Positions 3,996 through 64,000 of a DNA stretch of 64,000 bases are shown here, piece after piece. Source of the DNA: Serinus canaria (lineage: Eukaryota > Chordata > Aves > Passeriformes > Fringillidae); NCBI RefSeq assembly GCF_022539315.1, contig NC_066342.1:16447346-16511345 (forward strand), in the 5' to 3' direction. Every line of letters starts with the position of its first letter. The stretch's first letter is position 1. The notes under the pieces were generated by a model. That model did no database searches. It was not told the origin of the DNA and worked only from the letters and a program-made list of their open reading frames with translations. The position numbers and the translations under genes are program-made.

Positions 3996-4045
3996 CTGCT
4001 AACTGCCATCTGTGGAGATCCCTCCACTATTTGGATGCCAGATTC

Positions 4046-6846: not shown

Positions 6847-6852
6847 TAATCC

Positions 6853-44391: not shown

Positions 44392-45791
44392 CTCGATCAT
44401 CTGGTCCGTGGTCACTGTATAGCCTATAATCCTTTTGCCATTTTTCATAAAGCTGCTTCCATTTGTAAAAAGCTCCCAATCTGGATTTCCCAGGGGCATG
44501 CCTTTCAGGTCTGGTCGGCTGGAATAGACTTCTTCAATTGTTTGCAAACAATCTGTCTTGGTTTGAAAAGATAGGTGTCTGCTAAAAGGAAGGTAAGAGC
44601 CTCCCCTGAAATGGACAATGTAAACCCCCTCCCTCTGAATTTTATAATTTTGAAATTAAAGGCTCTCAGGCAAGGATATGGGAATAGGAATAACAGTTAT
44701 TTACTAGAAAAACTAAAAATACAAATGCATAGTACCAAAAAAAAAAACCCAAACCAAAACCAACACTGACAGAGTCAGAATACAACCTGACACCCTGTGG
44801 GTCAGGGTGGTGGTAGCAGTCTGATTAAATGGTGGCTGCTGCAGTCCTCCTGGAGTGACAATATAGTTCTGTTTAAGCAGTGATCCTGTAGAAGGGTGTA
44901 GTTTTCCTCTGAAGGTATGGTGGTGGTGTAGATGGGCCTGGTCTTCCTCTGGGAATCCAGTGGAGAAGACAGCTGCTCCTCTGGGAATCCAGTGGGAAAA
45001 GGCTGCCTCTTATGTCCAAAATCTCAGACTATATCCAAGAAGGAATGCTTGGCTCCTCCTCCAGGGCAGAGCATCTCACAATGGGATGATGTAATTTTAT
45101 CAGTCATGCAGTGAGACTCAGTGGCCCATTAACAGAAGATATTTCCCAAAGAGAGGATTGGTTTGTGGAAGAGATAAAGAAAACTGCCCAATTAACAGAA
45201 AATAACTGCCCCACCTCTAACAGATGGCAAATAGAATACACACTTATCTTACAACCCAGGACACAATCATGTTCAGGCTTGTGGAAACTTGGCTAGCTGG
45301 GATAAATGGTGGTTTAACCTCAGTAGCATATACAGAAGGTGTTAACCTGAGACTGTGGGGAACAGGATACTTAAAAAGAGACCCTTAGCCAGGTCATGGC
45401 AGGAAGAGTGGGGTCATGGGAATCAATATGTTAATAGAACTATCCTATATTTGGCCAGGTTTCTGTTTCTTGTTCTCAGTTGGCTGGGAACCTGTTACTT
45501 ATAAGGTCATGTTCTGAGTTTGCATTCGTGATTGAACACTTACCCACAGAAGACCCCTATACCTTGTGGCGTTTGCCACGCCCCCCCATCTTTGGATCTT
45601 GACCCCTGTCCTAAGGTGATGTTATGATGCTTGTATCCCCAATCGTCTGTTCTGTTAATGCTGGATATTATATGCTGTGCCTTCAAGACTGGCTGAGAGC
45701 GAAGGCAGGGAGAAGAAGAAGCACAGAGTTTGTTATCAGGGACTGGACTCACTCCTCCTCAGTCTACTGGAACACTGTTATTGTCTGGGCA
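44392..45791. repeat. Second copy of 42482-43891 (probable assembly duplicate)
   Basis: Starts CTCGATCATCTGGTCC, as at 42482, and follows the same order: end of ERV G RNase H, the family Z LTR (44554-45263, with the same CAATC pentamers), the 330-bp segment and the start of the family X LTR. It is about 10 bp shorter than the first copy, nearly all by single-base losses close to the gap. Confidence 0.92.
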
Positions 45792-46246
45792 TGGATGGGG
45801 CAGAACACTGCACTCCTTTTGCTTTTTAGTTAGCTAGCTGAGGCAGTCCAAGCTTTCCCTGGACTGTTTTTCTTTCCCTTTTCTTGGAACCGTTTGAACC
45901 TGCTCCAGATCAGGACCCAGGGAAATACCAAGAGCACGCACTTTGTAGCCTGCCGAGGCCTACTCTGCAGCCTTTCTCAGCGCTAGAGGGACTGATAACA
46001 GAGTGACCACCCACCAGAGACACTTTCTGGATTTGTCCTCTTTCAGAGCAGCGAATGAGTTTTGTCATCCCATATTGTTCATTTTGTGTGCTGGGGAGTG
46101 CTTTGCCTGTTAAATAAACAGGTTCTTTCCACTTCTCTATGAGGAAATTTTTTTTCAAACCAGGTGGGGTGATGGGACATGTGGGTTGGCTTTCTGGAGG
46201 TGCCCCTTTTGGAGGTTTTGTCCCAAATTTGCCCTAAACCAGGACA
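45607..46246 (+). mobile_element. Solo LTR, family X
   Basis: 640 bp, TGTCCTAAGGTGATG...AAACCAGGACA, with AATAAA near 46115. The flanking pentamers ACCCC and CCCCC match at four of five positions, in a C-rich context. It may lie inside the 5' LTR of provirus I. Confidence 0.85.
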
Positions 46247-46516
46247 CCCCCGAACTCTGTGATTTTCCACATTTGTTATATTGTTATTAAAGTCTTTATT
46301 TTTCAGGGAAGACAATGGTTCCGGTTCCTTATTTTGCCAGTACCCCCTGGCCAAGCCGAACTACGGGTCACAGCAAGCGAAGACTAAGATAACTGGTGCT
46401 CAAACTAGAAACCTCACATTGAGGGACCTTCTTCGGTTTGGTTTGGCTGAGTTTTGGCCAAATTGGTAGGACCTATTTTTTCTCTTCTGTGGATTCAATC
46501 ATCAGGCCTGACGTGG
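46247..46516 (+). other. Probable 5' leader (R/U5 to gag) of provirus I
   Basis: 270 bp ending at the left target duplication of provirus H. It has an ATTAAAGTC poly(A)-like signal near 46285. After removal of H it would be continuous with gag-like sequence at 55176. The primer-binding site is not clear. Confidence 0.4.
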
Positions 46517-47168
46517 TGTCCTGGTTTAGGGCAAATTTGGGAGAAAACCTCCAAAAGGGGCACCTCCAGAAAGCCAACCCACATGTGCCGTCACCCCACC
46601 TGGTTTGGAAAAAAATTTCCTCATAGAGAAGTGGAAAGAACCTGTTTATTTAACAGGGCAAGCACTCCCCAGTACACAAAATGAACAATACCAGATGACA
46701 AAACTCATTCACCACTCTGAAGCGGTTACAAATCCAGAAAGTGTCTCTCTGGTGGGTGGTTGCTCTGTTATCAGTCCCACTGGCAATGGGAAAGGATGTT
46801 GCCCAGAGTAGGCCCCCAGCAGGCTACAAAGCGCGAGCTCTCGGTGTTTCCCCGGTTCCTGGTCTGGAGCAGGTTTGAATGGTTCCAAGAAAAGGGAAAG
46901 AAAAACAGTCCAGGGAAAACCTGGACTGCCTCACCTAGCAAAACTAACTAAAAAGCAAAAGGAGTGCAGTGTTCTGCCCCGTCTGTGCCCAGAAAACAAG
47001 AGTGTTCCAGCAGACTGTGGAGGAGTGATTCCAGTCCCTGATAAAAAATTCTGTGCTTCTTCTTCTCCCCGCCTTCTCTCTCAGCCAGTCTTGAAGGCAC
47101 AGAATATAATATCCAGCATAAACAGCACACGACTGGGGATACATGAATCATAACATCACCCTAGGACA
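46517..47168 (-). repeat. 3' LTR of provirus H
   Basis: 652 bp, TGTCCTGGTTTAGGGC...CACCCTAGGACA on the plus strand, preceded in the viral sense by a purine-rich GGGGATAAAGGGTGGAT (complement of 47169-47185). By eye it groups with 45607-46246 more closely than with its partner LTR at 54525. Confidence 0.9.
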
Positions 47169-47400
47169 ATCCACCCTTTATCCCCATATCGCCAACTTAC
47201 TACCAAACCTCATACATTTTATTTATGTAAAAACTTCCATCTGTTCCCCCCCAAAAATAACAAGTAATACCCATAATGCCCCCATCACGTCCCCACAATG
47301 AACCACTGAATCCAGGCCCCAGACTTCAGAGTTGCAGGATTACCCACTTTCATTCTACTCACTCAAAACCCCATCTTTCACTTGCTCAGATCTTCAACAA
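47169..47400 (-). other. 3' untranslated part of provirus H
   Basis: 232 bp between the polypurine tract and the inserted LTR. No coding content recognised. Confidence 0.5.
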
Positions 47401-48041
47401 TGTCCTAGGGTGATGTTATGATGCTTGTATCCCCAGTCATTGTTCTGTTTATGCTGGATATTATGTTCTGTATCTTCAAGACTGGCTCAGAAGAGCAAAG
47501 ATTTGTTTTGTTTTGTTTTCTTTTGTTTTCTTTTGTTTTGTTATCAGTCTGCTCCCTTCCCCAACGGTCGCCGGGACACAGAGACATAGTGCAGCTTTTA
47601 CTTCTTGCTTGTGCTTTCGCTTTGCTATTGCCTCTGCTTTGCTCCTGCTTTGCTCTTGCTTTTGCTTCTGCTTGTTAGTTTAGCAAGGCAGTCCGAATTT
47701 TCCCTGGACTGCTTTTCTTTTGCTTTCTTGGAACCACTCGAACCTGCTCCGGACTGGGACCTGAGAAACACCAAGATTTTGCACCTTGTAGCCTGAAACA
47801 GTTATTCCCAGTGCCAGAGGGACCGATACCAGAGCTACCACTCCCAGGAGAGACTTTCTGAATTTGTCATCTTTTTCAGAGTGGTGAAAGAATGCTGTCA
47901 TCCTGTTAAACAAACAGGTTCTTTCCACTTCTCTCTGAGGAATCCTTCCCAAAGCGGTTGGCGGGGAGGGGTCATCTGGGTTTGCTTTCTGGAGGGGCCC
48001 CCTTTGGAGGTTTTCTCCCAAATTTGCCTTAAACCAAGACA
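47401..48041 (+). mobile_element. Family X LTR inside provirus H, opposite orientation
   Basis: 641 bp, TGTCCTAGGGTGATG...AAACCAAGACA. A TTTTG/TTTTC simple repeat lies at about 47502-47540. The flanking pentamers (AACAA and GACAC) do not match, so the insertion may have been followed by deletion or recombination. Confidence 0.85.
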
Positions 48042-48133
48042 GACACACATTTCCTTCTATTACATGTCTTTATGGTTTAATGTAAAGACAATGGCAGTAA
48101 CATCCAACAAACAGTGATATTTACATGTGATTC

Positions 48134-48990
48134 TCACCCCACAATCAGATCTCCCTGAGGTACACATCGTGTTATTCCATCTCTCTGCATTATCCACCAT
48201 GTACAACCTGGTCCCTGAGCAAAGACAACCCCACATATGGGTTTGTACGTACGCGAGGCAGAATTGATCCACACAGTCTTCCTTAACAAACCACTGACAT
48301 GTACCACTGGGACTTTATCTCCATCTACCATATTCAGGGACTCAGACTGGGCAGGACCTGCTTGGTTGGTGGACCCTCGGCTGTTAACTAACCAGGTGGC
48401 CTTTGCTAAATGCTGCTCCCAGTTTTTGAAAGATCCCCCACCCAAGGCTTTCAACTGGGTTTTTAGTAGTCCATTATACCTCTCCACTTTGCCTGCAGCT
48501 GGTGCATGGTAGGGGATATGGTACACCCACTCAATGCCATGTTCCCTAGCCCAGGTGTTGATAAGGCTGTTCTTGAAATGAGTCCCATTGTCTGACTCAA
48601 TCCTCTCAGGGGTACCATGCCTCCAAAGGACCTGCTTTTAAAGGCCCAGGATGGTGTTATGGGCAGTAGCATGAGACACAGGGTAGGTTTCTAACCATCC
48701 CGTGGTGGCTTCAACCATTGTGAGCACGTAGTGCTTGCCTTGGCATGTCTGGGGCAGTGGGATGTAGTCAATCTGCCAGGCCTCCCCCTACTTGTACTTG
48801 AACCACTGCCCACCATACCAAAGGGGCTTTACTCGCTTGGCCTGTTTGATGGCAGCACACGTCTCACAGTCATGGATAGCCTGAGAAATACTGTCCATGG
48901 TTAAATCCACCCCTCGGTCTTGTGCCCACTTATAGGTAGCATCTCTACCCTGATGGCCTGAGGCATCATGGGCCCATCAAGCTAGGAATA
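48134..48990 (-). pseudogene. pol: Integrase of provirus H (ERVL type)
   Basis: The minus strand shows, in order, the zinc-module end (CETCAAIKQAKRVKPLW), a core start with WQIDYIPLPQTCQGKHY, SDNGTHFKN near 48580 and GKVERYNGLLKTQ near 48480, then a C-terminal domain ending VVFAQGPGCTWWIMQRDG and a stop at 48134. All three core acidic residues are visible. In-frame stops occur near 48792 and 48640, and a frameshift near 48530, so it is inactive. 48042-48133 is 3' untranslated. Confidence 0.85.
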
Positions 48991-49931
48991 ACTGTCCCTT
49001 GTGTTCCTAATCTAGGTCTATCTTTGACACCCCTATCTTTGCAGCCTGGTCTACTTGCTTATTGTTTTGGTGCTCCTCATTATCTCTACTCTTGGGGACA
49101 TGGGCATCTATGTGACGGACTTTCACAGGTAGCCTCCCTACCCTGGTAGCAATGTCTTTCTACTCTATAGCAGCCCAAATTGGTTTTCCCCTATGCTGCC
49201 ATTTAGCATCTTTCTACCTCTCCAGCTATCCCCACAGAGCATTGGCCACCATCCATGAATTAGTACAGAGGTAGAGCTTTGGCCACTTCTCTCTTTCTGC
49301 AATGTCCAGGGCTAGTTGAACAGCTTTGAGTTTTGCAAGTTGGCTTGATTCACCTTCTCTTTCAGTGGGCTCTGCGACCTGTCATGGGGGCTCCATATGG
49401 CTGCTTTCCACTTCTAGTTCATCCCTACGATGCAACAGGAACCATGAGTGTAAAGAGTGTAGTGTGTTTCCTCTGATGGAGGTTGGTTGTATGGTGGAGC
49501 TTCTTCAGCCCGTGTCACTGGTTCTTGTTCTTCATCTGTGACGCCAAAATTTTCCCCTTTGGGCCAATTTATAATTACCTCCAAAATCCCAGGGTGATTC
49601 AGTTGACCTATACAGGCGTGCTGTGTGATAAGAGCAATCCGCTTGCTCCATGCAGTGCTGGTGGCATGGTGGGTGGAAGGAACCTTGCCTTTGAACATCC
49701 ACCCCTGCACCGGTAGTCAGGGTGCCAGGAGGAGTTGTGCTTCTGTACCAATCACCTCTGAGGCAGCTTGGACTCCTTCATAGGCAGCCAAGATTTCTTT
49801 CTCTTTTGGGGTGTAGTTAGCTTCAGACCCTTTGTAGCTGCAAGTCCAAAATCCTAGAGGTCGGCCTCGAGTCTCACCAGCCACCTTCTGTCAAAGGCTC
49901 CTGGACAAACCATGGCTCCCGGCTGCAGAGT
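48991..49931 (-). pseudogene. pol: RNase H and connection of provirus H
   Basis: A minus frame at 49414-49710 with TLYTHGSCCIVGMN, the RNase H start (the TDG aspartate reads His), preceded by connection-domain sequence (ITQHACIGQLNHPGILEV). Decayed RNase H codons continue to about 49000, with further stops. Confidence 0.7.
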
Positions 49932-50399
49932 TGAGACAGAGCAGAAATTTTCCAGAGCAGAAATCCATTTTGATTTAGGTGAAATGTACATTTTTGAATT
50001 AAGTCTGTGGCTTGCAGACATAGCTGTTTGGTCTAACTCCCTGTTCTCGAGAAAACATATGCTATAACAAACTGCTTTGGGCGAAGGACAGAGATAAGGA
50101 GGGGCCCCTTGAACTCTGAAACAGAGTCTGCAGGAGACAAGGCAGGATGACCCAGGAGTTCTTTCTGATAAAAAACTAGAGGTAAATATAACTGAAATCA
50201 GAAGAATGAATAGGTATAAATCTATTGTGAATTTGCATGGATATGGATTAGTAAGGGAGATAAAATGAGATCTGTATTTCCCAGAGGTGTGCATGTCCTT
50301 TTAAGGGGAAGGATCCCCACATGCATCCAGCGCGGTAATAAACATACCAGCTTTACAACTTTCACAAATGTTGTGGAGTTTGTTTCCTTCCGCAAATCA
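49932..50399 (+). mobile_element. Solo LTR, ERV E family, inserted in pol of provirus H
   Basis: 468 bp, TGAGACAGAGCAGAAATT...CCGCAAATCA, clearly related to the ERV E LTRs. AATAAA is near 50336. The tetramer GAGT is duplicated at 49928-49931 and 50400-50403, as expected for a gamma-type integrase. Confidence 0.93.
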
Positions 50400-51298
50400 G
50401 AGTAGAGCATGTTCTTCACATCTGGTCCTGTCCTGACTCGGCCAAGGGCTACCGCGTGAACGATCTCCTACTTAATCTGGGCAAAAGCTTGTTGCTGCTT
50501 AGGGCCCCAGTTAAAATCGTTCTTCTTGCGAGTGACCAGGTAAAGAGGGTTCACAACCTGACAGTACTCAGGAATGTGCATTTTCCAAAAGCCTATGGCA
50601 CCTAGGAAAGCTTGCATCTCCTTCTTATTGGTTGGTGGAGACATTGCTGTGATCTTGTTGATGACAACTGTAGGAATGTGACGGAGTTCATCTTGCCACT
50701 TTACTCCTAGGAATGGAATCTCACGAGCTGGTCACTTTACTTTGCTCTTTTTGATGGCAAAACCAGCTCCCAGGAGGATTTGGATGATTTCCTTTCCTTT
50801 CTCAAACACTTCTGCGTCTGTGTTCCCCCACACAATGATGCCATCAATATACTCTAGGTGTTCTGGAACCTCACCCCTTTCTAGTGCAGTCTGGATCAGT
50901 ACATGGCAGATGGTAGGACTGTGCTTCCACCCCTGGGGCACTCGGTTCCAGGTATACTGCACTCCCCTCCATGTGAAAGCAAACTGAGGCCTGCATTCTG
51001 CTGCCAGAAGAATGGAGAAAAATGCATTGGCAATATCAATAGTGGCATACCACTTTGCTGCCTCTGACTCAAGCTCATACTGGAGCTCTAATATATCTGG
51101 CACGGCAGTGCTCAGTGGTGGAGTCACTACATTCAGTGCAGGGTAGTCCACCGTCAATCTCCATTCTCCTTCAGATTTATACACAGGCCAAATGGGGCTG
51201 TTGAGGGGTGAGTGGGGTTTGCTGACCACCCCTTGGCTCTCCAGCTCTCGGATCATTTTATGGATGGGGATCAGAGCATCTTGAGTTGTTCTATACTG
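50400..51298 (-). pseudogene. pol: Reverse transcriptase of provirus H (ERVL type)
   Basis: The minus frame 50732-51256 has SPLNSPIWPVYKSEGEWRL, then TIDIANAFFSILLA, then RVPQGWKHSPTICH, then EYIDGIIVWGNT. The catalytic motif reads YIDG where the family has YIDD, so the second aspartate is lost. Thumb sequence continues past 50720 to the solo LTR at 50399 with stops. Confidence 0.87.
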
Positions 51299-51782
51299 TC
51301 AGCAATGCACTGTGGACATGGCAATTGGTAGCTGTTGCTCTTGTCCCTTCAGAAGTCCTACTGCAGATGGAGTCTCAGACAGTCGAGGCAAGGTGTTCAA
51401 TTGCTGGACACCCTCTGTCACTACAGCCGCTATCCCAAAAGCCCACCTGAGTCCTTTTGGGTCTTTGAAATACCCACTTCGGAGGTAACCTATGCCCAAA
51501 ATGCATGGGGCCTCTGGGCCAGTCACAATAGGACATTTCTTCCACTCATTTCCAGTCAGGCTCAAGTCAGCTTCCACCAAATTAAACTCCTGTGATCCCC
51601 CTGTCACACCAGCAATAGAAACAGATTCTGTCCCCACGTCTCGATGGGATTAATGTGCACTGCGCACCAGTATCGAACAAAGCTTCATAATCTTGTGGTT
51701 CAGATGTGCTAGGCCAACGAATCCACACAGTCCCGAAAACATGGTTTTCCCTAGCCTCTACCTGGCTTGAGGCAGGGCCCCT
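51299..51782 (-). pseudogene. pro: Protease of provirus H
   Basis: The minus strand at about 51635-51690 reads ALFDTGAQCTLIPSRR, an intact Asp-Thr-Gly-Ala active site. After a frame change the frame 51299-51637 continues with VEADLSLTGNEWKKCPIVTG and CILGIGYLRSGYFKDPKG, the flap and C-terminal half of ERVL proteases. Confidence 0.78.
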
Positions 51783-52883
51783 CTAAGCCTGATTATCCTT
51801 CTTTCCTTGGACGTATGTCTTGGAGGTTCCTTCAAGGGGATCGGACATATCATCATCATCATACCTGGCAGTTCGGCTATGGGCCACTGGAGCTGCTTTC
51901 CTTTTGGTGGAACTCGCTCTCTGAGCCTTGCCTTCCTTCAATTCATGCACCCGTTGGGCCAGAGCAGCAGTAGATTTTCCATCCCATCTCCTCATGTTTT
52001 CTTTGCAATCATGCAGGCAGAACCACAGCTCAGCTAGTGGGGTGTACCTTCTCACTCCATCTGAGGAACTTCTGCGGTAGATACTAGAACTTTTGATCTG
52101 TACTGCCGAGATTTGGAGAAGGTCTTCTTTAATCTCCTCCTTGAGTTTCTTATGATTCTCCTCCATCTTGTCCTCTTATTTCTGCAGACGCATTTCCACT
52201 GCTGGGATTATGGCATGTGTTGGGCCACGTACAGCATCTGCATATGCACAGAGATTGTTCGCTATCTCAAACACGGTCTCATCCCTGTCATCCCGCATCA
52301 TTATTGCTAAAGCAGAAGCATATTCATGTGGCCCAAGTCATAAAAGTTTTCGCCACCTCACAGACCTCCATGGTACCAAGTCTGGATTCCTAGTTGTTAT
52401 GTCATCTGAGAAGATAATCTCTGCCGCTGCCATTTCTCTCAGGCATTGGATCCCTTGTTCTATGGTCTTCCACTGGCTTTGCTGCATATAGAGATCATCT
52501 GCACAAAGGTATCTTTGTGCTACACTTTCTAGCATCTGTGCCCAGAGGCTGTGAGGGTTAGCCCCCCTCATCATTCCTTGGTTGATGACAGAATCATGTG
52601 ACAGGGATCCCAAATGCCTCGCCTCAGTGCCATCCAGAATTGAAGCCTTGCCTGCAGCATCCCGAAGACAGAAACACCAACTAATTATAGATTTGTCAGG
52701 TCTGTCAGAACCCAGGACATTCCTATAACTGCCCTGGAGGATTCGAGACCCTGGCAAGGGTCTCAGAGACCTTGGCACGGGGTCAAAAACACCTGTGCCT
52801 TCGATTTTAACCCATTGAAAAAATTACCAACTTTGTCTAAGGACTTACAAGCCACAATAATTGAAGTAGAATGATAGTTAATT
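51783..52883 (-). pseudogene. gag: Gag of provirus H, C-terminal half
   Basis: Minus frames 52338-52778 (with QMLESVAQRYLCADDLYMQ and GIQCLREMAAAEIIF) and 51783-52166 (basic and acidic stretches, WDGKSTAALAQRVHELKEG). These resemble ERVL Gag by recollection: helical capsid-like part, then a charged C-terminus without zinc knuckles. One or more frameshifts lie at 52170-52340. Confidence 0.65.
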
Positions 52884-53307
52884 TGTCACGGGGTGAAAAA
52901 GTAGAATTTTGGGGATTTAGAATGGGGGTTCAAGAGGCAAGATGGAGGAATCTGGGTGTGTCCTGTTCTTCTCCTTCTTCTTCTTGTCCTCCATCTTCTG
53001 CTGTGATGGTGACACTTCTGGATTGGTTTTGAGTAAAGACAGACTGTCCAGCATAGGTGATAGGTATTGGAAAATTATTGTAAATAAAGTACACTTAATT
53101 CTTAGTATAAAAAGCTAACACCACCCCAAGGGTGGTCAGTGTGCCACGAACCGACCTGACAGACCGACCTCAGCGAGTCAGAGAAAGAATGTAATAGATA
53201 AGAGAAAAAAAACAGCCTTGAAAACCAGAGCCGAGGAATCTTGACTTCTTTGGTCGCGGGGCTGGGAAAAAAGACTCTTTAATACCTCGTGAGCCATTTC
53301 AACCACA
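52884..53307 (+). mobile_element. Songbird-type LTR inserted in gag of provirus H
   Basis: About 424 bp, beginning TGTCACGGGGTGAAAAAG, with a CTTCTT-rich stretch, TATAAAAAG near 53107 and an end near CATTTCAACCACA. The start and inner landmarks match an abundant songbird LTR that I remember. The right end is uncertain (53307 or 53309) and no target duplication was found. Confidence 0.7.
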
Positions 53308-54505
53308 CAAAACCTGGGACTGGTCATCGAGTGTAATCCTTTCTTAGGCCGCAAAGGTCCTTCAGGGTAAAGGACTCAGTATTGGCTTCTGATCTTGTGC
53401 CTGCTGCTTTGACTCCTGATTTTCTGTCATGAAGTGTTGAGGGTCCTTCTCATGCATCATGACCATCATCATCATCCACTGGTCTATCGGTCTGGTGCGT
53501 GCACTTTCCACTTCTAATGCTGGTAGCAGCAGCCATTGGTTGAGGCATATTGTCTGGTTTAGCTGCTGGCTTACGCTCACTATCTGGTTTAGCTGCTGGC
53601 TTCGAGCCTGGGGTGTTTGCTGTAGCCTGGGTGACTGAGATAGCGGTTAATTTATCTCCCTGCCCCCCTGCCTCTGTCTGCTGCCCTACAGTATCTAGCA
53701 GCGTGCGATAAGCATATGCCAGGGCCCAGCTCACTGCAATGATCTTTTTCTCCTTAGGGTCATCCTGGTACTTCTCTTTCAGGTATTTCCCCACCTCAGC
53801 TGGGTTCTGAATTTTTTCACGTGGAATGTCCCAGGCTATAAGGTCAGAGAATTCCTTCAGGATTTGGCCCATATCCTCCCATTTCCCACACCACTCAGGA
53901 TTTTCCATGCCTGGGTCTACTCCTGGGTCAGGGGTCTCATCAGCCCCTCTAGAAATCTCAGCCCGGATTCTAGAGAAGCTGCAGACTGTATAGAGGAAGC
54001 TTACCAGATTGAATACCAGAAAGATGGTCTCTTTAACATTCAGGGGAAACTGAACATTCTCCAATAGGGAGGTAACAGATTCAGAGGAGAAGAAGGAAAG
54101 CAAAGTCTGAAAAGCCTCATCCCCTGCTCCTCCTCTAACCAACTGGATGCATAACCATAGCCATGAACCATTCATACCTGGAACAGACCCCAGCACCTTT
54201 ATAAACTTCTTACAAATAATTACCACCAATCTCAGCCAAATAGCTATTCTGGTCACTGCCCCTCTGCTGTGAAAACTACATATTAGGGACAATACTAGAG
54301 CTATTTCTGGATAAGAAAATAAGCCTAGGGTACATAGAGGTATTAAGACCTCAAAAAAACCTAGGGACCAGAAACACATGCAAGCCTCCACCCCAAGAGA
54401 CATTATGAATTCAAAAAGCATGTCTAATAACTGCTTTATACCAACACAGACTAATTGCATCCAAAATGCAGTCAGAACAGGGTTTTTTCCACTCTCTCGA
54501 GCCAC
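53308..54505 (-). pseudogene. gag: Gag/leader open frame of provirus H, 351 codons, hydrophobic N-terminus
   Basis: The minus frame 53450-54505 is open for 351 codons from a GTG inside the primer-binding region; the first in-frame ATG is about 15 codons later. The first 120 residues contain several hydrophobic, membrane-like segments (for example FFEVLIPLCTLGLFSYPEIA), followed by a soluble acidic part (WDIPREKIQNPAEVGKYLKE), an alanine/threonine-rich stretch with a duplicated KPAAKPD motif, and an acidic DDDD end. The soluble part fits Gag; the hydrophobic start is unlike ordinary Gag. Its start codon and expression are uncertain. Confidence 0.55.
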
Positions 54506-54518
54506 ACATTGGGTGCCA
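54501..54518 (-). promoter_or_regulatory. Primer-binding site of provirus H
   Basis: In the viral sense TGGCACCCAATGTGTGGC lies six bases inside the LTR. It resembles lysine-tRNA type primer sites with about three differences. Confidence 0.6.
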
Positions 54519-54524
54519 AATATT

Positions 54525-55170
54525 TGTCCTGGTTTAGGGCAAATTTGGGAGAAAACTTCTAAAAAGGGGCCTGTCTAGAAAGCAAACCTACACGGACCCT
54601 CCCCCCAACTGGTTTGAGAAGGATTTCTTTGGAAAAAATTGGAAAAAACTTGTTTATTTAACAGGCAAAGCACTCCCCAGCACACAAAATGAACAATACG
54701 GGATGACAAAATTTATTTGCTGCTCTGAAGAGATGACAAATTCAGAAAGTCTCTCTGGTGGGTGGTTGCTCTGTTATCAGTCCCTCTAGCGCTGAGAAAG
54801 GCTGCAGAGTAGGCCCCAGCAGGCTACAAAGTGTAAGCTCTCAGTGTTTCTCCAGGTCCTGGTCTGGAGAAGGTTTGAATGGTTCTAAGAAAAGGGAAAG
54901 AAAAACAGTCCAGGGAAAACTTGGACTGCCTCAGCTAGCTAAACTAACTAAAAAGCAAAAGGAGCACTGTGTTCTGCCCTGTCCGTGCTTAGACAACAAG
55001 AGTGTTCCAGCAGACTGTGGAGGAGTGAGTCCAGTCCCTGATAACAAACTCTGTGCTTCTTCTTCTCCCCACCTTCACTCTCAGCCAGTCTTGAAGGCAC
55101 AGAATATGATATCCAGCATAAACAGAACAGACGATTGGGAATACAAGCATCATAACATCACCCTAGGACA
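54525..55170 (-). repeat. 5' LTR of provirus H
   Basis: 646 bp, TGTCCTGGTTTAGGGC...CACCCTAGGACA on the plus strand, with AATAAA on the minus strand near 54655. By eye it groups with the solo LTR at 61796-62437. Confidence 0.92.
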
Positions 55171-55175
55171 CGTGG

Positions 55176-56141
55176 TTATGAATGACCCTCAGAGTTGGCT
55201 CAGATGCTTCACATGCATGACCCAAAAAGCAGGTAACAGGAGAAAAGGGACAAGATGGGAATACGCCTATCTACTCTGGAAAGGAACCTATATGATTGCT
55301 TTGTGAGAAACAACTTCTCACTTTTTAAAATTGTAAAGGTTTATTAAACCTTAACAAAAAAATACAACAAAAGGCCTAAATAAGGAAGAATAACAGTGCT
55401 GGAAGCCCCCGCCCAGGTGGCTGCCAGCCATGTGGCTCGTTCACAAAATGGCTGCTCCACCTTTTATACCCTTGGTGTTGCATCAGATAATCCTAGCCCC
55501 TCCCAAAGTCTATCATTTAATTCTTCGTCGCCGTCCACTGGTGGAGACTGCTTCATTGCAACTTGATTGGAAGTCAAGTGTTGCCATGCCGTGCCTCTTA
55601 GTAACAAGCCTTCCCTTCCCCTAAATGCCCCGACCACCAAGGCCATTATAGGTGACATAATACAGTAACATAACTACACATCTTAACATAAACATAATAT
55701 TTATCTCTTAATTGTGAGAGCCAACTATTACATTACTTATCTATAGCAGCTTTAATCTTTTGTTAGCAGTCCATGAAAGAAAGGTCCAAAAGCACTAGTT
55801 AAAAAACCTTCTAAAATGGGTATTTCGGAACTTTTCATTGAGTGTAGCTAGTGGTGCTGCACCAGGTGCTGCCACCGCCTCTCCTGAAACTGCACTGCCC
55901 TTACCCACAAGAGCTTCCTCTGCTGCTTCCCCCCCCACTCACCCGCCTGTTGGGTGCTGCTGCAGCCTGGCCCCGCTTGTCGGTCCCACTGCTTCTGCCT
56001 CTCCCACTGCCTCTCGCCTGCCGCAGCCTGCGGGACAGCCCCGCACAGCTCTGCGGAAAATAATATGGACTATGGAATTTTTTCAGTGGGATTTTGGGAT
56101 TTTTTGGGTGTCACACTTTATGACTTAGCTACTAGGGGAAC
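55176..56141 (+). pseudogene. gag: Gag of provirus I, matrix region, split by a solo LTR
   Basis: After the right target duplication of H the plus strand carries a matrix-like fragment split by the solo LTR 55302-55748. It continues at 55753 with LLKWVFRNFSLSVAS near 55795-55845, similar in type to FIKWILSQFPDTN of provirus A, followed by an alanine/proline-rich linker (55838-56128). A further solo LTR cuts at 56142. The reading frame has stops between these pieces. Confidence 0.6.
55302..55748 (-). mobile_element. Solo LTR in gag of provirus I
   Basis: 447 bp, TGTGAGAAACAAC...CTATAGCA on the plus strand, with flanking tetramers GCTT at 55298-55301 and 55749-55752 identical. It shares an inner block with the LTR at 23398-24010. 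Confidence 0.9.
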
Positions 56142-56782
56142 TGTCACGATCTGCTAGGGCAAGCGAGGTCGTGATAGTTCATTTACAGATCCCAAAAGTG
56201 CAAAAGACAAACAGCAGGGAGTATCAGTTTAATCACAACAAATGCACCTTTATTGAGGGCCAACAGAAAATGCGATAGAGGAATCAGAAAAGGTAATAAA
56301 GGATAGAAAGAAAAAGAGGGGAAGGGGAATATAGCTACCAACAAGACGGAATCTTCACGGTCCAGCCACATAGATGCGCCGTCACCCATGGGGGGGGGGG
56401 GGTCACCAAAGTCGTCTCAAAAGTTTCAGTTTATATAGTCTCAATCCAAAGCGAGTGGCATCTGGCCAAAAGGTGGGGAAGATTCATGGGCCATTGTGTT
56501 GAGACCCCTTGGTCTGTGAGGCAGGTGTGAGCATGCAAGGACAAGCCACTGCTTGTCAGAACTTGTGAGGCAGGTGCAGGCGTGTAAGCACAAGCCACCA
56601 TTTATCAGAACCTGTTTGAAGCAGTGTTCTGTGAAGGCACAGCGAGCACACCTGCAAAAAATCACTTGGCATGACATCCAGAAAACGTCCCACTCATCCA
56701 GGCCAGAGCTGCTGTCGGGGGTCTTCAGGGCCCTTGTGACGATCGTGAGGCAAATGAAGGAAACTCCGGACCGTCTCTTACA
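56142..56782 (-). mobile_element. Solo LTR, second insertion in gag of provirus I
   Basis: 641 bp, TGTCACGATCTGC...CTCTTACA. On the minus strand TATATAA (complement of about 56430-56440) and AATAAAGG (complement of about 56247-56254) are visible. The pentamer GGAAC is duplicated at 56137-56141 and 56783-56787. A G-run lies at about 56391-56402. Confidence 0.9.
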
Positions 56783-56787
56783 GGAAC

Positions 56788-58607
56788 CCCTTTGCGTCGC
56801 TTCTGCTTCCTGCTTTCTGCGCAATTTTCAAAGTGCTCAAAGCTGAAGAGCACCGACTCCTAGCTCTTGGCCCCTCCCCCACCTTACCAGCACGGCAGGA
56901 ATCCGAGGGGTCTGGGACCACTCCACCAAGTGGGATCCCTTCCCAAACCGAGACTGCTTTTAACCCCCCCTAACCCTGGGGGTTATTACCTGCTAAACAC
57001 TCTCCTAATGTCTGTCCCACCGAAAGATACTGTGTTGCCTCAGGGTTCCTCCCTGAGCTCCATCCCCGTTGCTCCAGGTCCCACTGCTCCCACTCCGGAC
57101 TACAACTCCCAGCATGCCTCAGGGTTCCTCCCTGAGCTCCATCCCCGTTGCTCCAGGTCCCACTGCTCCCACTCCGGACTACAACTGCCAGCATGCCTCA
57201 GGCCATTCCCTTCCTGGGGAAACTGGAACCACGCCCACCATGGTCCAGGAAACACTGCTCTCCAATATGGTGGTGTCCATGTCGCCCACTCTGCTGGCTG
57301 TGCCAGAGAAAAAGCTCTGCCTTTATCCATCCAGCAATAACAACACTGTGCTTGCATCCTCCCCCCCCCCCCCCCCAGAAGAAGACCTCACTTCTCCTAG
57401 ATCCAGTGATTCCATCGATCCATAGGAAAGGATACAGGCAAGTGCTGTAAAGGATGGGAATGGTTTCAAAAATCACTGCTTTTCCCGTGCAGTACAAAAA
57501 GGGGAGAACTAGTCCTAAATGGGAACCTCTAGCCTATGGGGAAATAAAAGAACTCTGCAAAGCTGCCAAAGACCATGGTATGGATTTCCTTTTTTTAACA
57601 ATCTAATATGGGCTACTTTTACTGCACACTTATGAACTCTCCTCATGATTCAAAACACATGATGACTGTGCTGCTATTCCCCACTGAATTCACCCTGTGG
57701 GAAGGAGAGTGGAAAAGACTTAAAACAATTATTGCTTGACTATGTGGAAGACCAAGTACAGGCAATGCTAACACTACAACATTTAACTGGAGAAGGGGCA
57801 TACTCCTAACCCAATGAGCAAGCCACAAACCTCCCAAGGGCGGTGCTTAATGATATTAAAAATGCAGCAAAGAAAGCACTTTTGCAAGTGCCAGATGGTA
57901 ACACACCTACACAAGATTTTGTAGAAATAAAGCAGGGGCCTGGTGAATCATACATGAAATTCATTGACCACCTTAAGCAAGTAATTGAAAAACAAATCAT
58001 AAAAGAGAAAGCTAAAGATGAATTAGTGAAAAAACTGGGCATGTCAAATGCAAATCCTGAATGCAAGAAAGAATTACATGCCCTTCCCCTTGAGCCTGAG
58101 CCAACTTTAATGCAAATGACTGAGGCCTGGAATCACCTCGGAACTCCGGAACACTCAGCTACCCTACAGGCTCAAGCAGTGGGACAGGGAGTGGCTGAGG
58201 CTTTGGCAGCAATGGAGATTATTCCTCAAGGACCTCAACAACCGCAAGGTCCTATCCCTGCCACACAAACTGTCCCCCATGGGCCACAACAACAAGGTCC
58301 TGGCCTGTGTTTTGAATGCGGCAAACACAGATATTTCAAAAGAGACTGCCCCCGACAAGGAGCGAGGGCCAAGGTTCCTGCCTGTTCTAAGTGTAAAAGG
58401 AGTTACCCTCACACTAACCAATGTTGCCCAAATGGGGGTTATGGCAAGCCAGCCTCGGGAAACTTCCAGGAGAGCGCAGAACGGCCCTGTGCTATGAAAC
58501 AAATGCCCCAGCTGTTTCTGCCCACAACCACTGGAAGCCAGGTAGCTCAGAGCTTCAACACCTTCTCTCAGGGCTACCACCAGCCTTGCTCCCAGGTGCC
58601 AGGCTGA
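56788..58607 (+). pseudogene. gag: Gag of provirus I: linker, capsid and nucleocapsid
   Basis: The linker (56867-57425) is proline-rich and contains a 79-bp tandem duplication (57037-57115 and 57116-57194) that shifts the frame. Decayed capsid N-terminal codons occupy 57430-57840. The frame 57843-58607 is open for 254 codons: the major homology region (KQGPGESYMKFIDHLKQVI, about residues 29-47), the KKLGMSNANPE helix, and two zinc knuckles. In the first (CFECGKHRYFKRDC) the zinc-binding histidine position is Tyr. The second (CSKCKRSYPHTNQC) has its cysteines and a histidine. It is related to Gag of provirus A. Confidence 0.82.
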
Positions 58608-59038
58608 ATCTGGCAAGTGCCAAGCCATTAACACTGACTGATTATTTTACATACACCATATCAACAGGTCAACCTTGGGCCCAAAGATTGTCCCCGTGAA
58701 CTGTTAATTTTGGGAAAGTGCAGATCAAGGACCGAGGGACTTTTTGTGTTACCCTCTGTGTTATCAGTAACATCCCAACAAGAAATCACTGTGTTAGCTA
58801 TGTGCCCTGACCCACCTTGCTTTATCCCCCAGGGACTGGTAATTGCTCAAGTGATTTTGCTCCCTGAACAGGACTTTAACAATACATCAGAGTCCTTAGT
58901 AAAGTGGACTAGGATAATAAGCCTTAATCGACCTCAACTAACCTGCACATTAGAACTTAACACCAAAAACATTGTTCTCTCAGGACTCATTGACACAGGT
59001 GTGGACATGACAGTCATCTCACAGTCCAAGTGGCCTCC
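58608..59038 (+). pseudogene. pro: dUTPase-like/protease region of provirus I
   Basis: The plus frame 58710-59051 is open. Its first 80 residues resemble the dUTPase-like part of provirus A pro (QGLVIAQVILLPEQ compares with KGTPITQAFLLP). It then reads LSGLIDTGVDMTVISQSKWP, the protease start with Asp-Thr-Gly present and the next alanine changed to valine. The solo LTR at 59039 cuts it there. Confidence 0.75.
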
Positions 59039-59616
59039 TGTCGTGGGGTGACAGCCTTTATCCCAATATCGTGTGTTATGTCTGGCATGTGCGCCTTTCT
59101 TCTCCCCCCCCCCCCCCCCCCCCCCCCCGGCCGTCTTGCCGCGGCGGGGCGGGGAGGGGGGGGTGAGGGTGACCGGGCACCTTGGCTTTTGCTTTTGGCT
59201 GGCTGGCTGCTGCTGCTTAGCTGGCTGGCTGCTGCTGCTTAGCTTGCTGGCTGCTGCCGCTTAGCTTGCTGGCTGCTGCTGCTTTTGCTTGCTTGCTTTT
59301 TGCGCTTTTTTTTTCTTCCCTCTTTCTTACCCTCCCCTGAAGATACCGTACCGGCTCCGGACCTGACCTGGGACGTCCAGGACCCCCCGGAGCCTGCGAG
59401 AGACGCTCAGCACCCTACACAACACTGCCTGTTTTTTTCCTTTTCTTGTGTTGGGGAATGTTCCCTTGTTACTTGTTATTAAATAGGTTTTCTTTTCCAC
59501 TTTGCTCCTCCGAGGAATTCCTTCCCGAACCTGGTATTGGGGGAGGGGTGGTTGGAGGTTTGTTTTTAGGGGACTCCCTTTCGGAGATTTCCCCTAATTT
59601 GTCCTAAACCAGGACA
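59039..59616 (+). mobile_element. Solo LTR, diverged member of family X, in pro of provirus I
   Basis: 578 bp, TGTCGTGGGGTGACAG...AAACCAGGACA. The pentamer CCTCC is duplicated exactly at 59034-59038 and 59617-59621. It contains a long C-run (about 59103-59128) and four tandem units around GCTGCTGCTTAGCTGGCTG (about 59190-59285). Confidence 0.93.
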
Positions 59617-59621
59617 CCTCC

Positions 59622-60690
59622 CGACTTGATTCTTACGCTTGCTTCAGGAATGCTATAGGGGATTGGAGGTTCCAGTGACAGCCTGAGAATTATGCAGCTG
59701 ATTAAGTTCAAGGGACCTGAAGACTGCATTGCCACCACCAGACCCCTTGTGGTAAGATCCCCTATAGTTTTGTGGGGAAGAGACATTTTGTCCCAGTGGG
59801 GAATGCACCTAGAGATGAATTTGTAATTGGGACAATTGAACAGCATGACGTCCTTAAATTAAACTGGAAAACTGATAAACCCATGTGTATTAATCAATGG
59901 ACCCTCCTTGAAGCAAAACTCGCGATGCTTAAGTCTCTAGTTCAAGAACAACTCCAAAAGGGTCACATTATATCGACCACAAGCCCATGGAATACACCTG
60001 TCTTTGTCATCCAAAAACAAACTAGCAATAAATGGTGATTCCTGCAAGACCTAGGTAAATTTAATGAGGTCATCGAAGACATGGGCACACTACAACCTGT
60101 TTTACCATCCCCTGTTAAGATTCCTAAGGAATGGAAATTTACTGTTATCTATTTAAAAGACTGATTCTTTGACATTCCCCTTCATCCCGATGATGCCCCT
60201 CAATTTGCTTTTTCAATACCAAGCCTTAATAGACAGACCCCTCTCCAGAGGTACCACTGGACAGTACTACCCTAAGGCATGAAAAATTCTCTGACCATAT
60301 GCCAATGGTTTGTGGCTAAAGTTTTAGCTCCAGTTCGCCAAGGTCATCCACAAGCAATTATTTACCATTATATGGATGATATACTTATTGCAGCTGAAAA
60401 TGATCCATCTTTAGATACAACTTTAAAAGCCACTGTCACAGCCATCCAACAAGCAGGACTAACCATCTCAGAGGAAAAGATGCAACAAACGTCACCCTGG
60501 AAATATTTGGGACTTAAAATTCTCTCTCAGACTGTACAGCACCAACCATTGCTGCTAAATGAGAAACCAGAAGCACTCCACAATTTACAAAAACTGTTAG
60601 GAACCATTAATTTGATTAGGTCTTTGCTGGGAATTAGTAAGGAAGATTTGGTTCCATTGTTTGTTTTGTTAAGGGGGGGGATTCTGAGTT
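59622..60690 (+). pseudogene. pol: Protease end and reverse transcriptase of provirus I
   Basis: Protease C-terminal codons lead into RT at about 59830. 59772-60038 contains TSPWNTPVFVIQKQ and ends at a stop near 60036. 60279-60692 is open and contains SLTICQWFVAK, YHYMDDILIAAEN with intact YMDD, and SPWKYLGLKILSQT. Additional stops lie near 60162 and 60272. It is closely related to the RT of provirus A. Confidence 0.85.
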
Positions 60691-61795
60691 AAATTCACCT
60701 AGGCAGCTAACTGACAAAGCAAGGGATGCCTTAGATAAAGTATCCCATGCCATTCAAACTCATCAGGCACATAGAATAAATCCAAACTTACCATTCCTGC
60801 TAGCTATTTTGGGAAAAGGACCCCAACCCCATGCTCTAATTTTTCAATGGGACCCCAAGGCGTCTGATCCTTTGTTAATATTAGAATGGGTTTTCCTACC
60901 CACCAGCCTGGTAAAATCATAACAACGAAGCCAGAGATGATGGCTCAGCTTATTATAAGAGCCAGGTCACATTTATTTTCTCTTGCAGGGAAAGATTTCT
61001 CTACTACATTCTTACCTACAACTACTGTATATTTAGTCTGGCTATTGCAACAATCAGAATGTTTGCAAATTGCACTCGAAAATTTTAGTGGGTAAATTTC
61101 AATTCATTACCTTTAACATAGACTGTTGCATTCCTCCCTTAGCTTAATTCCTAAGCCTTTCAAAAGTGATGCACTCCTTAATGCACTAACCATCTTTACC
61201 GATGTATCAGGACAATCCTATAAATTGGTTATAACCTGGCAAAACCCTGTGATACATGACTGGGAATCTGACATAGAAACAGTAGAAGGTTCACCCCAAA
61301 TAGCTGAATTAGCTGCAGTTGTTAGAGCTTTTTCCAAGTTCACATGCTCTTTTAATTTGGTAACTGATTTAATTTGGTCACTGATTCTGCTTACTTTGCA
61401 GGTATTGTTGAGAGAGCTGAAAATTAATTCCTAAAAACAGTTTCTAATGATCAGTTATACTTTTTGCTTAAAACTTTAGTTTTTATTCTTTCTCAGACAC
61501 AGCATCCCTATTTTGTCATGCACATTTGTTCTCATACTTCTTTGCCAGGATTCCTAGCAGAAGGTAATAGACCAGCTGATACCCTGACAATGACCATACA
61601 AACAACACTTCCAAACATCTTTGAACAGGCACAGCTCAGCCATGCATTCTTCCACCAAAATGCACCAGCACTAACACACATGTTTAATATCTCCAGAGAT
61701 CAAGCTAAAGCAATTGTCACTACATACCCTGACAGCCAAAAATGTTCTCTGCTGTCTATTGGGGCAGGAGTCAGTTCTAGAGGGCTGTTCTAAGG
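60691..61795 (+). pseudogene. pol: RNase H and integrase zinc module of provirus I
   Basis: Plus frames 60886-61095 (connection, SLAGKDFSTTFLPTTTVYLV), 61126-61434 (RNase H start, LTIFTDVSGQSYKLVITW, where the first aspartate is kept but the next residue is Val, then SPQIAELAAVVRAF) and 61464-61793 (HICSHTSLPGFLAEGNRPAD, then HAFFHQNAPALTHM). In the zinc module the two cysteines read Tyr-Pro-Asp-Ser, so zinc binding is lost. A solo LTR cuts at 61796. Confidence 0.8.
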
Positions 61796-62437
61796 TGATG
61801 TTATGATGCTTGTATCCCCAATCGTCTGTTCGGTTTATTCTGGATCTTATATTCTGTACCTTCAAGACTAGTTCAGACAGTGAAGGCAGGGAGAAGAAGG
61901 AGCACAATTTAGTTATCAGCTGCACTCTCCCCCACAATCTGCTAGAACACAGAACTCCACTGTTGTTGTCTAAGCACGGACAGGGCAGAACACAGTGCTC
62001 CTTTTGCTTTTTAGTTAGTTTAGCTAGCTGAGGCAGTCCAAGTTTTCCCTGGACTGTTTTTCTTTCCCTTTTCTTAGAACCATTCAAACCTGCTCCAGAG
62101 CAGGACCTGGAGAAACACTGAGAGCTTACACTTTGTAGCCTGCTGGGGCCTACTCTGCAGCCTTTCTCAGCGCTAGAGGGACTGATAACAGAGCAACCAC
62201 CCACCAGAGAGACTTTCTGAATTTGTCATCTCTTCAGAGCAGCAAATAAATTTTGTCATCCCGTATTGTTCATTTTGTGTGCTGGGGAGTGCTTTGCCTG
62301 TTAAATAAACAAGTTTTTTCCACTTCTTCCTGAACAAATCCTTCCCAAACCAGTTGGGGGGAGGGGCCATGTAGGTTTGCTTTCTAGACAGGCCCCTTTT
62401 TAGAAGTTTTCTCCCAAATTTGCCCAAAACCAAGACA
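61796..62437 (+). mobile_element. Solo LTR, family X, in integrase of provirus I
   Basis: 642 bp, TGTTCTAAGGTGATG...AAACCAAGACA, with AATAAA near 62304. The pentamer AGGGC is duplicated exactly at 61791-61795 and 62438-62442. Confidence 0.95.
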
Positions 62438-62442
62438 AGGGC

Positions 62443-63130
62443 TTCACAGTTTACAAATTTGGCAGTGCGATGTTACCCATTATGCATCTTTTGGTCGCTT
62501 TAAAGATATACATTTCCATAGACACTTTCTCTGGAGCAATCTTTGCCTCTGCTCACTTAGGTTATGAAACATTTCCTGCAAGCATTTTCAACTCTAGGCA
62601 TCCCACAAGAAATAAAAACAGATAATGGGCCTGCCTATGTCTCCCAGAAAACACAGCAATTTTTTAATCTGTGGGGAATCAAACATATCACAGGCATTCC
62701 ATGCTCTCCCACAGGCCAATCAATTATTGAAAGAACACATGGGTCTCTTAAACGCCTGCTAGAGCAACAGAAAGGGAGAATAGAGACCCTATCCACAGTC
62801 GAAAGGCTTGCTAAGGCCGCATATGTATTTAACATTTTTAATAATTCCTTTTGGGAACCAAATCCCCTAATTATCAGGCACTTTTCTAATACAACACAGG
62901 CACAATTAAAGAAGAGACCCCCAGTGTTAATTAAAGATCTTGATACAGGCCAAATTATAGGACCCTTTCCTCTGATTACTTGGTAGAAAGGGTATGCTTG
63001 TGTTTCTACAGGTAAAGGACCTCAGTGTGTTCCTGCAAACCACATCAAGCCATACCTGCAGCCTCTACAAGATCACCAAGAATCTCTACAGGAGGAACCC
63101 CAGGAAGAACCTACAGAAAAGACAACTTGA
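62443..63130 (+). pseudogene. pol: Integrase core and C-terminus of provirus I
   Basis: The core start resumes after the LTR in shifted frames near 62445-62560. 62564-62986 is open for 140 codons with IKTDNGPAYVSQKTQQF and TGQSIIERTHGSLKRLL, containing the second aspartate and the glutamate of the catalytic triad. The C-terminal domain follows to about 63130. Confidence 0.82.
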
Positions 63131-64000
63131 GGCTTGCGGATAACCTCATACCTTTTGCTGATTAATAACACTGGTTTCTTAATTCCTTGAGCATTATTAA
63201 TTTTTGAGTTAAATCCACAGGTTTTTCCACCAGACATGACTCCTAAAAGACTCCTCACTATACCCATCCTGGTCGATGCCATGCTCCTCGCTAAGACCTG
63301 CAAAGTCCTGCAGCCAAAGAAAAATGTCTGGGTTACGTTAGCTAACATCACCAAGCAGGAAACCCCGTGTCTGTCAGTAGCCACCCCTGAAAACCCCTTT
63401 TCCACCTGTTTAGTTGGGTTACCAACAGATGTGTGGCCGCTAACCAAGGATGCCATCCACGAATTGCATTCCCACAATTAATGGATTCACAATACTGTTG
63501 ATAACTGGGATTACTGGGCCTGGAAACTACTGCATGCACCACTAGAACCCTAAGAATTGGAAATTCTGGACTCTGTAAAAATGGATTTTTGTGTTAAATT
63601 TCATGATATCGAAAAGACTCCCAAATTAATGCCAAGTATAATTGGTGCCCAGGCTATAAGAAAGCAACCAAATACATGGTGGGATGTTTCCCCACATCAT
63701 CCAGTCTATAAAAATGGAAGTACTTGGTGTAACTACACCTCACCCATCTTTTCCTGGTCCAGTGATTCCCCATTACAGTTACCATCTGGGACGTTTCTCA
63801 TTTGTGGAGACAGAGCATGGCCTGCCATTCCATCTCGCATTTAGGGCAGACCACGTAGCTTGGGGAGGCTTACTGTGCTAGCACCTGAGATTTCCCCAAT
63901 TCGTGACAAAAAAGTAAGATGTAAGAGATTTATCCATCAATTCAAATCATATTGCAAAGATGAAAATAACTTTTGGAGTAAAGGAAAAAGAATAGCAGCC
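63131..64000 (+). pseudogene. env: Env SU of provirus I, runs off the window
   Basis: The plus frame 63236-63481 contains NVWVTLANITKQETPCLSV and STCLVGLPTD, matching the start of env in provirus A. 63557-63844 continues SU with NGSTWCNYTSP and FLICGDRAWP. Stops and frame changes lie near 63480, 63555 and 63841. TM and the 3' LTR must lie beyond 64000. Confidence 0.75.

What the first reader, a model, noticed from the sequence alone, without database searches (positions are those of the whole stretch)
46247..64000. One old beta-like provirus carrying at least five nested insertions, most dated by exact target duplications
Coding sequence of provirus I (gag, pro, pol, env) resumes after every interruption: H (CGTGG), solo LTRs at 55302 (GCTT), 56142 (GGAAC), 59039 (CCTCC) and 61796 (AGGGC). 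H itself contains three more LTRs. The window thus preserves a readable stratigraphy of retroviral activity: provirus I, then H, then a gamma-type solo LTR with GAGT. Different duplication sizes (4 and 5 bp) separate the integrase types.
Basis: partly seen in the sequence, partly recalled or inferred. Interest (0 to 1): 0.75.

Follow-up and report, generated by a model that had tools for sequence, protein, structure and literature searches.

The report
Nested bird retroviruses with LTR conversion

Summary
H holds three more LTRs; one has an exact duplication (GAGT).

Coding continuity against a related provirus in the window is close at two of five junctions (59039, 61786) and modest at 55302. 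At H and 56142 the case rests on the duplications. Provirus I has no demonstrated LTR: its 3' end lies outside the window, and its 5' side nears an assembly gap with an artefactual duplication.

Two corrections. H is class III (spumavirus/ERV-L-like), not beta, fitting its 5-bp duplication. And the LTRs are not independent clocks: H's 5' LTR and the inverted solo LTR 61786 match at 344/346 positions in the middle but 143/168 beside it, while H's own LTRs match there at 305/346. Gene conversion is the best reading. A known kind of locus with a useful caution.

The parts
46247..46516 (+). Sequence between solo LTR 45607-46246 and H; left target flank of H (ends CGTGG). Probably 5' LTR end or leader of provirus I, not demonstrated
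   Evidence: Exact CGTGG at 46512-46516; no similarity to the first 1177 interior bases of provirus A above shuffled controls (score 26, null max 38)
55171..55301 (+). Provirus I leader end and start of gag (ATG at 55255), between H and LTR 55302
   Evidence: ATG and following codons resemble, by eye, the gag start of provirus A at 8808 on the minus strand; nucleotide score 28 is within the shuffled range (max 33)
55749..56141 (+). Provirus I gag, matrix and Pro/Ala-rich part
   Evidence: 55781-55834 matches A 8707-8654 (18 aa, E 0.002, no complexity filter); nucleotide score 47 against shuffled max 42, in a low-complexity part
56783..59038 (+). Provirus I gag (capsid) and first part of protease
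   Evidence: Pfam Gag_p24_C 3.9e-17; RVP profile positions 7-35 ending at the insertion
59617..61785 (+). Provirus I rest of protease, RT, RNase H region, integrase zinc domain
   Evidence: RVT_1 1.2e-16, RVT_thumb, Integrase_Zn; 48.6% identical over 321 aa to provirus A
62438..64000 (+). Provirus I integrase core and 5' part of env (3' end outside window)
   Evidence: rve 7.8e-10, weak Avian_gp85 below the curated cut-off; best PDB match 3jca at 90.3 bits
46517..55170 (-). Provirus H, class III (ERV-L/spuma-like), TSD CGTGG
   Evidence: LTRs 46517-47168 and 54525-55170; TSD; RT 87.6 bits to 7kse against 55.0 to 7sr6; integrase closest to PFV-type chains
54525..55170 (-). H 5' LTR; about 54996-54650 nearly identical to solo LTR 61786
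   Evidence: 344/346 identical in alignment columns 226-608; longest run reached in 0 of 10000 permutations
46517..47168 (-). H 3' LTR
   Evidence: 305/346 identical to H 5' LTR in the same columns; 3' block 122/126 identical to solo LTR 45607
47401..48041 (+). LTR inside H, relative of the H LTR family, no TSD
49932..50399 (.). Solo LTR inside H pol, TSD GAGT, related to LTRs at 28584 and 33449
   Evidence: five bird proteins adjoin at the insertion
52703..53326 (.). LTR inside H gag, TG..CA ends, no exact TSD
   Evidence: 9 of 11 bird gag proteins have pieces on both sides; flanks read separately
55302..55748 (.). Solo LTR in I gag matrix region, TSD GCTT
56142..56782 (.). Solo LTR in I gag, TSD GGAAC
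59039..59616 (+). Solo LTR in I protease, TSD CCTCC, distant relative of the H LTR family
61786..62437 (+). Solo LTR in I integrase, TSD AGGGC, same family as H
45607..46246 (+). Further solo LTR of the H family just left of the stated start; flanks ACCCC/CCCCC (4 of 5)

Best explanation
In a bird genome, probably a passerine's, a class II (beta-like) provirus, I, integrated first. Later at least five elements integrated into it at separate sites: class III provirus H on the opposite strand and four elements that survive as solo LTRs; a sixth (45607-46246) may lie in I's own 5' LTR. H was itself hit by three further LTRs. Each integrase left its own duplication length, and the solo LTRs are what is left after recombination between the two LTRs of an element (inferred from known ERV biology). 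After integration, H's 5' LTR and the oppositely oriented solo LTR at 61786 exchanged sequence by non-crossover gene conversion over about 350 bp. Shown: insertions, duplications, nesting, classes of I and H, mosaic identity. Inferred: gene conversion as the cause, its direction, and membership of the H and 56142 flanks in I.
For: Duplications and termini. Ordered I domains on the + strand. Junctions in I against provirus A, which lacks these insertions: left of 59039 the hit ends at A 5713 = I 59036, and on the right an antisense-frame hit colinear with the sense hit 59710-59811 reaches A 5716 = I 59616. Left of 61786 the hit ends at A 3537 = I 61787 and on the right starts at A 3545 = I 62436. 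Placed on these lines, the two duplication copies cover the same five A bases at each of the two junctions. Junctions in H: 9 of 11 bird gag proteins have pieces on both sides of 52703-53326 (in P0129 residues 297 and 298 adjoin, in the other eight the pieces overlap by 12-42 residues because alignments run on into the LTR; flanks); 17 of 193 proteins have pieces somewhere on both sides of 49932-50399, five with residues adjoining or overlapping by up to four. Classes. Conversion: H5 and 61786 differ at 25/168, 2/346 and 11/126 positions in 5', middle and 3' blocks (Fisher 3.6e-11, 5' against middle; block edges were chosen after seeing the data); longest run 42 polymorphic sites, reached in 0 of 10000 permutations, a test without blocks. 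The other five pairs differ at 35-42 of 340-346 in the middle, so that block is not slow-evolving. Of 40 fully ungapped H3/H5 differences there, 61786 has the H5 state at 39. The middle-block tree joins H5 and 61786 with near-zero branches (support 0.952); the 5' tree does not.
Against: Continuity at H and 56142 is not shown: the 46247-46516 flank matches nothing in the provirus A leader, and both sides of 56142 give overlapping low-complexity hits to one Pro-rich part of A. I's LTRs are not demonstrated. The 55302 support is one 18-residue hit (E 0.002, no complexity filter) and an ATG matched by eye, with spacing 101 nt in A against 75 in I. The 3' block of H5/61786 differs at 11/126, so the tract is interrupted or a second event is needed. 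Other LTR pairs also show unusual runs: 45607/H5 in columns 114-185 (15 of 10000 permutations) and H3/H5 in 178-225 (113 of 10000), so the mosaic is more complex than one exchange. An assembly chimera cannot be excluded without reads. The host genome search did not complete.
Confidence: 0.83

Rival explanations
1. Nesting is real, but the near-identical middle tract of H's 5' LTR and solo LTR 61786 is an assembly artefact (collapsed or chimeric repeat), not gene conversion.
For: A 500-N gap at 43892-44391, about 1.9 kb left of the stated interval and 10 kb from H's 5' LTR, is flanked by unmerged 99.2% overlapping contig ends, so the assembly is imperfect nearby.
Against: Each LTR has its own intact, different duplication. 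They differ at 25/168 in the 5' block and 11/126 in the 3' block. No other run of five or more N lies in the window.
Confidence: 0.1
2. The solo LTR 61786 came from a virus whose LTR was a recombinant sharing the middle of H's LTR; no post-integration conversion.
For: Its 5' block is an outlier (82.5-85.1% to the other three LTRs), so 61786 looks mosaic.
Against: H's two LTRs were identical at integration (established), yet 61786 shares the H5 state at 39 of 40 middle differences, 16 of them with H3 equal to 45607. A daughter of H would carry U3 from the 3' LTR (established retroviral biology), but it matches H5; that the tract is mostly U3 is inferred from the AATAAA position.
Confidence: 0.06
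3. H is not a single provirus: its LTRs belong to two elements joined by recombination.
For: H's LTRs differ at 79 of 643 aligned positions, more than H5 and 61786 do (38 of 640).
Against: Exact CGTGG on both outer sides; gag, RT and integrase pieces collinear on one strand.
Confidence: 0.05
4. Segments assigned to provirus I belong to more than one old element of the same strand, and the insertions do not all lie in one provirus.
For: The H and 56142 flanks have no conclusive homology test.
Against: Exact duplications bind both sides of each insertion; domain order is a normal gag-pro-pol-env.
Confidence: 0.1

Closest known systems
Songbird ERV solo LTRs classed ERV1/ERVL/ERVK by TSD of 4/5/6 bp (PMC6523648, passages seen; PMC11009239, search listing and one passage)
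   Same: TG..CA ends, duplication lengths of 4 and 5 bp, mostly solo LTRs
   Different: Here at least five insertions lie in a single recognisable provirus and three more in one of them; the passages seen do not treat nesting
Ectopic gene conversion between human LTRs (PMC4921805, passages seen)
   Same: Tracts of tens to hundreds of bp; the authors think linked donors are favoured
   Different: Bird ERVL-type LTRs in opposite orientation about 6.6 kb apart; tract about 350 bp, near the upper end of that paper's maximum-tract range (14-450 bp)
Spumavirus / ERV-L class III retroviruses
   Same: H RT and integrase rank foamy-virus-type chains first (partly recalled names); 5-bp duplication
   Different: H is decayed; its primer site, read by eye, looks lysine-like against a recalled consensus, not the leucine type recalled for HERV-L

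Membership tests
Class II (beta-like) ERV, for provirus I | RT and integrase closest to betaretroviruses | tested here: met
   7sr6 84.7 bits against 46.1 next; 3jca/7usf about 90 bits; names recalled
Class II (beta-like) ERV, for provirus I | gag-pro-pol-env in order on one strand | tested here: met
   7 of 10 pieces matched, in order; env is partial and below its cut-off
Class II (beta-like) ERV, for provirus I | Paired LTRs with 6-bp duplication | not testable with these tools
   3' LTR outside window, 5' LTR not resolved
Class III ERV (ERV-L), for H | RT and integrase closest to spumaviruses | tested here: met
   RT chain identities recalled, integrase chains named PFV
Class III ERV (ERV-L), for H | 5-bp duplication | tested here: met
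   CGTGG
Class III ERV (ERV-L), for H | Leucine primer-binding site | tested here: inconclusive
   Site read by eye looks lysine-like; primer consensuses are recalled
Gamma-type (ERV1), for LTR 49932-50399 | 4-bp duplication | tested here: met
   GAGT
Gamma-type (ERV1), for LTR 49932-50399 | Relation to an element with gamma-type pol | tested here: inconclusive
   LTR relatives at about 76-79% flank an RNase H with nine weak gammaretroviral-type hits
Gamma-type (ERV1), for LTR 55302-55748 | 4-bp duplication and relation to gamma-type pol | tested here: inconclusive
   GCTT only; no relative found in the window
Ectopic gene conversion | Sharply bounded identity between paralogues exceeding that of true siblings | tested here: met
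Ectopic gene conversion | Unconverted state in a related species | not testable with these tools
   no bird genome collection at hand; host genome search unanswered

The most novel reading that the evidence does not exclude
Neighbouring inverted LTRs in this locus homogenise in pairs after integration: H's 5' LTR with 61786 (344/346 over about 350 bp) and H's 3' LTR with 45607 at the U5 end (122/126; 6 of 10000 permutations). Nested ERV piles would then be self-converting, and LTR divergence would date exchange rather than insertion.
Probability: 0.35. Interest if true: 0.45.

Novelty: new member of a known kind. Interest (0 to 1): 0.3.

Why it matters
It is a clean worked example of three levels of nesting in which the relative order is secure but the usual LTR clock is not. 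The overall H3/H5 divergence (79/643) is about twice that of the 5' block outside the shared tract (11/172). Dating H by its LTR divergence would therefore be unsafe, and the same may hold for other nested bird ERVs.

Tried and rejected
Looked for relatives of I integrase and H RT in viral contigs: none confirmed among 12 and 8 pattern matches. tRNA scan of the window: none. Tried four times to search the host genome; did not complete. Scanned 52600-53420 blindly for duplications (350 TG/CA pairs) and got two 4-bp hits, about what chance gives; replaced by homology-defined edges, which give no exact duplication. Considered 45607-46246 as I's own 5' LTR: rejected, because no primer site was seen after it, it belongs to the H family, and it has its own near-duplication. 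A single crossover (inversion) between H's 5' LTR and 61786: rejected, because it would have exchanged the outer duplications, which are intact. Homology of the H left flank with A's leader: not found. The tblastn printed nothing; rerun without one option.
Full report
What was checked. The finding says that one old beta-like provirus, I, carries at least five insertions with exact target duplications. I read 45000-64000, compared the window with itself, tested ends and duplications by script, classified pieces by Pfam and PDB sequence searches, and tested continuity piece by piece against a related provirus in the same window and against bird proteins.

Insertions in I. H 46517-55170 (CGTGG), 55302-55748 (GCTT), 56142-56782 (GGAAC), 59039-59616 (CCTCC) and 61786-62437 (AGGGC) all have TG..CA ends and exact duplications. 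Together they make up 10972 of the 17754 bases of the interval. A further LTR of the H family, 45607-46246, ends just left of the interval with flanks ACCCC/CCCCC; it is probably a sixth insertion, but what it interrupts is not shown.

Chance. Random TG/CA pairs share an adjoining 4-mer in 972 of 200000 draws and a 5-mer in 280 of 200000. For H and 61786 the ends were fixed by LTR similarity. For 55302, 56142 and 59039 boxes of 35, 24 and 30 pairs were scanned, so their evidence is weaker, weakest for the 4-bp case; 59039 had one competing candidate.

Is it one provirus? Pieces on the + strand give, in order, Gag_p24_C, RVP, RVT_1, RVT_thumb, Integrase_Zn, rve and a weak Avian_gp85 below its curated cut-off; 7 of the 10 pieces had a match. 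Provirus A (21-9702, minus strand, LTRs 98.1% identical) is a relative without these insertions. At 59039 the left hit ends at A 5713 = I 59036; on the right the sense hit (59710-59811) is colinear with an antisense-frame hit that reaches A 5716 = I 59616. At 61786 the left hit ends at A 3537 = I 61787 and the right one starts at A 3545 = I 62436. On these lines the left and right duplication copies fall on the same five bases of A at both junctions, as an insertion with a 5-bp duplication requires. At 55302 the support is modest: the gag ATG (55255; A 8808) was matched by eye and one 18-residue hit (55781-55834; A 8707-8654, E 0.002, no complexity filter) lies in order, with spacing 75 against 101 nt. 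At 56142 both sides give overlapping hits to one Pro-rich part of A (E down to 1.7e-4, low complexity), which fits but proves little. The left flank of H matches nothing in A's leader. Of the four segments compared by nucleotide alignment only 55749-56141 exceeded its shuffled controls (47 against 42).

Classes. I's RT piece matches 7sr6 at 84.7 bits and HIV chains at 44-46; its integrase matches 3jca/7usf at about 90 bits; its capsid piece has only moderate PDB hits, HIV chains first (43.5 bits), which does not class it. H's RT matches 7kse, 7ksf, 7o0h, 7o0g and 7o24 at 85-88 bits (foamy viruses by recall), MLV chains at about 70 and 7sr6 at 55.0; its integrase ranks PFV-type chains first at 38 bits. 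H's RT has 786 relatives at E <= 0.001, of which 120 were listed; those with a readable species name are birds, the closest passerines (Hirundo, Turdus, Zosterops; 83-89%). One listed relative is named 'endogenous retrovirus group K member 19 Pol protein-like' [Sturnus vulgaris], a source's name that goes against my class; I rely on the PDB ranking. I's gag piece found two relatives, one in Hirundo at 36% and one without a name at 70%. The host is therefore probably a passerine, which is an inference. Songbird curators assign 4, 6 and 5 bp to ERV1, ERVK and ERVL (PMC6523648, passage), so the 5-bp duplications here point to ERVL-type integrases; the same paper notes one element with both 5 and 6 bp. 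Only H was classed independently by its pol; the solo LTRs at 61786 and 45607 share its LTR family, 59039 is a distant relative (69-75% over short pieces), and 56142 is unclassed.

Inside H. Of 11 bird gag proteins tested, 9 have pieces on both sides of 52703-53326; residues 297 and 298 of P0129 adjoin there, and the flanks read separately agree. This LTR has no exact duplication. Around 49932-50399 (GAGT) 17 of 193 proteins have pieces somewhere on both sides; in five (P0007, P0028, P0036, P0142, P0144) the residues adjoin or overlap by up to four. LTR 47401-48041 has no duplication.

The LTRs are not independent. The two LTRs of a provirus are identical at integration (established). Yet H's LTRs differ at 41/346 positions in the middle block while H's 5' LTR and the solo LTR 61786 differ at 2/346; beside it the latter pair differ at 25/168 and 11/126 (block edges set after seeing the data). 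Permuting the 128 polymorphic columns never gave such a run (0 of 10000). The other five pairs show no slow middle block. Of 40 ungapped H3/H5 differences there, 61786 has the H5 state at 39, 16 of them with H3 equal to 45607; in the 5' block it has the H5 state at 7 of 11 and in the 3' block at 20 of 27. A second, weaker case is H's 3' LTR with 45607 at the U5 end: 122/126 (6 of 10000 permutations). Both pairs are inverted neighbours. Against neat pairing, 45607 and H5 share a run in columns 114-185 (15 of 10000), and H3 and H5 one in 178-225 (113 of 10000). Since each LTR keeps its own duplications, a net inversion is unlikely and non-crossover conversion is the simplest account. Direction is uncertain; the rising H3/H5 difference (11/172, 41/346, 27/125; Fisher 0.062 and 0.00016 against the first) suggests that H's 5' LTR was the recipient at least at its 3' end. 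Ectopic LTR conversion is known in humans (PMC4921805, passages). My five searches listed at most 20 papers each and I saw passages of four papers; none of these titles or passages describes such exchange in a bird ERV nest, which is a weak negative.

Left edge. A 500-N run at 43892-44391 is flanked by 42482-43891 and 44392-45791 at 99.2% identity, ending and starting exactly at the gap. This is best read as an unmerged contig overlap, so the partial LTR at 43707-43891 is a phantom copy of 45607.

Verdict. The relative order I, then H, then the GAGT LTR is secure if the H flanks are both I, which its duplication supports; ages are not known.

Noticed in passing
42482-45791: 500-N gap at 43892-44391 with the same 1.4 kb on both sides at 99.2%: best read as an unmerged contig overlap, so one copy is artefactual.
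   Followed up: yes
24598-30119: Adjacent copies of about 2.75 kb at 96.9%, each holding an LTR (25834-26254, 28584-29000); a third LTR lies at 33449-33867 beyond a decayed gamma-type pol.
   Followed up: partly
21-9702: Provirus A (minus strand, LTRs 98.1%), a relative of I, with a relative of the H LTR family nested near 1163-1810.
   Followed up: partly
57036-57202: A 79-bp tandem duplication in gag of I (98-99% identical copies); 79 is not a multiple of three.
   Followed up: no
63554-63841: Weak match of I's env to avian retrovirus gp85 (21.7 bits, cut-off 32.2) behind a beta-like pol: possibly a mosaic class II element.
   Followed up: no
54501-54518: H's primer site, read by eye on the minus strand, looks lysine-like against a recalled consensus although its pol is class III.
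   Followed up: no
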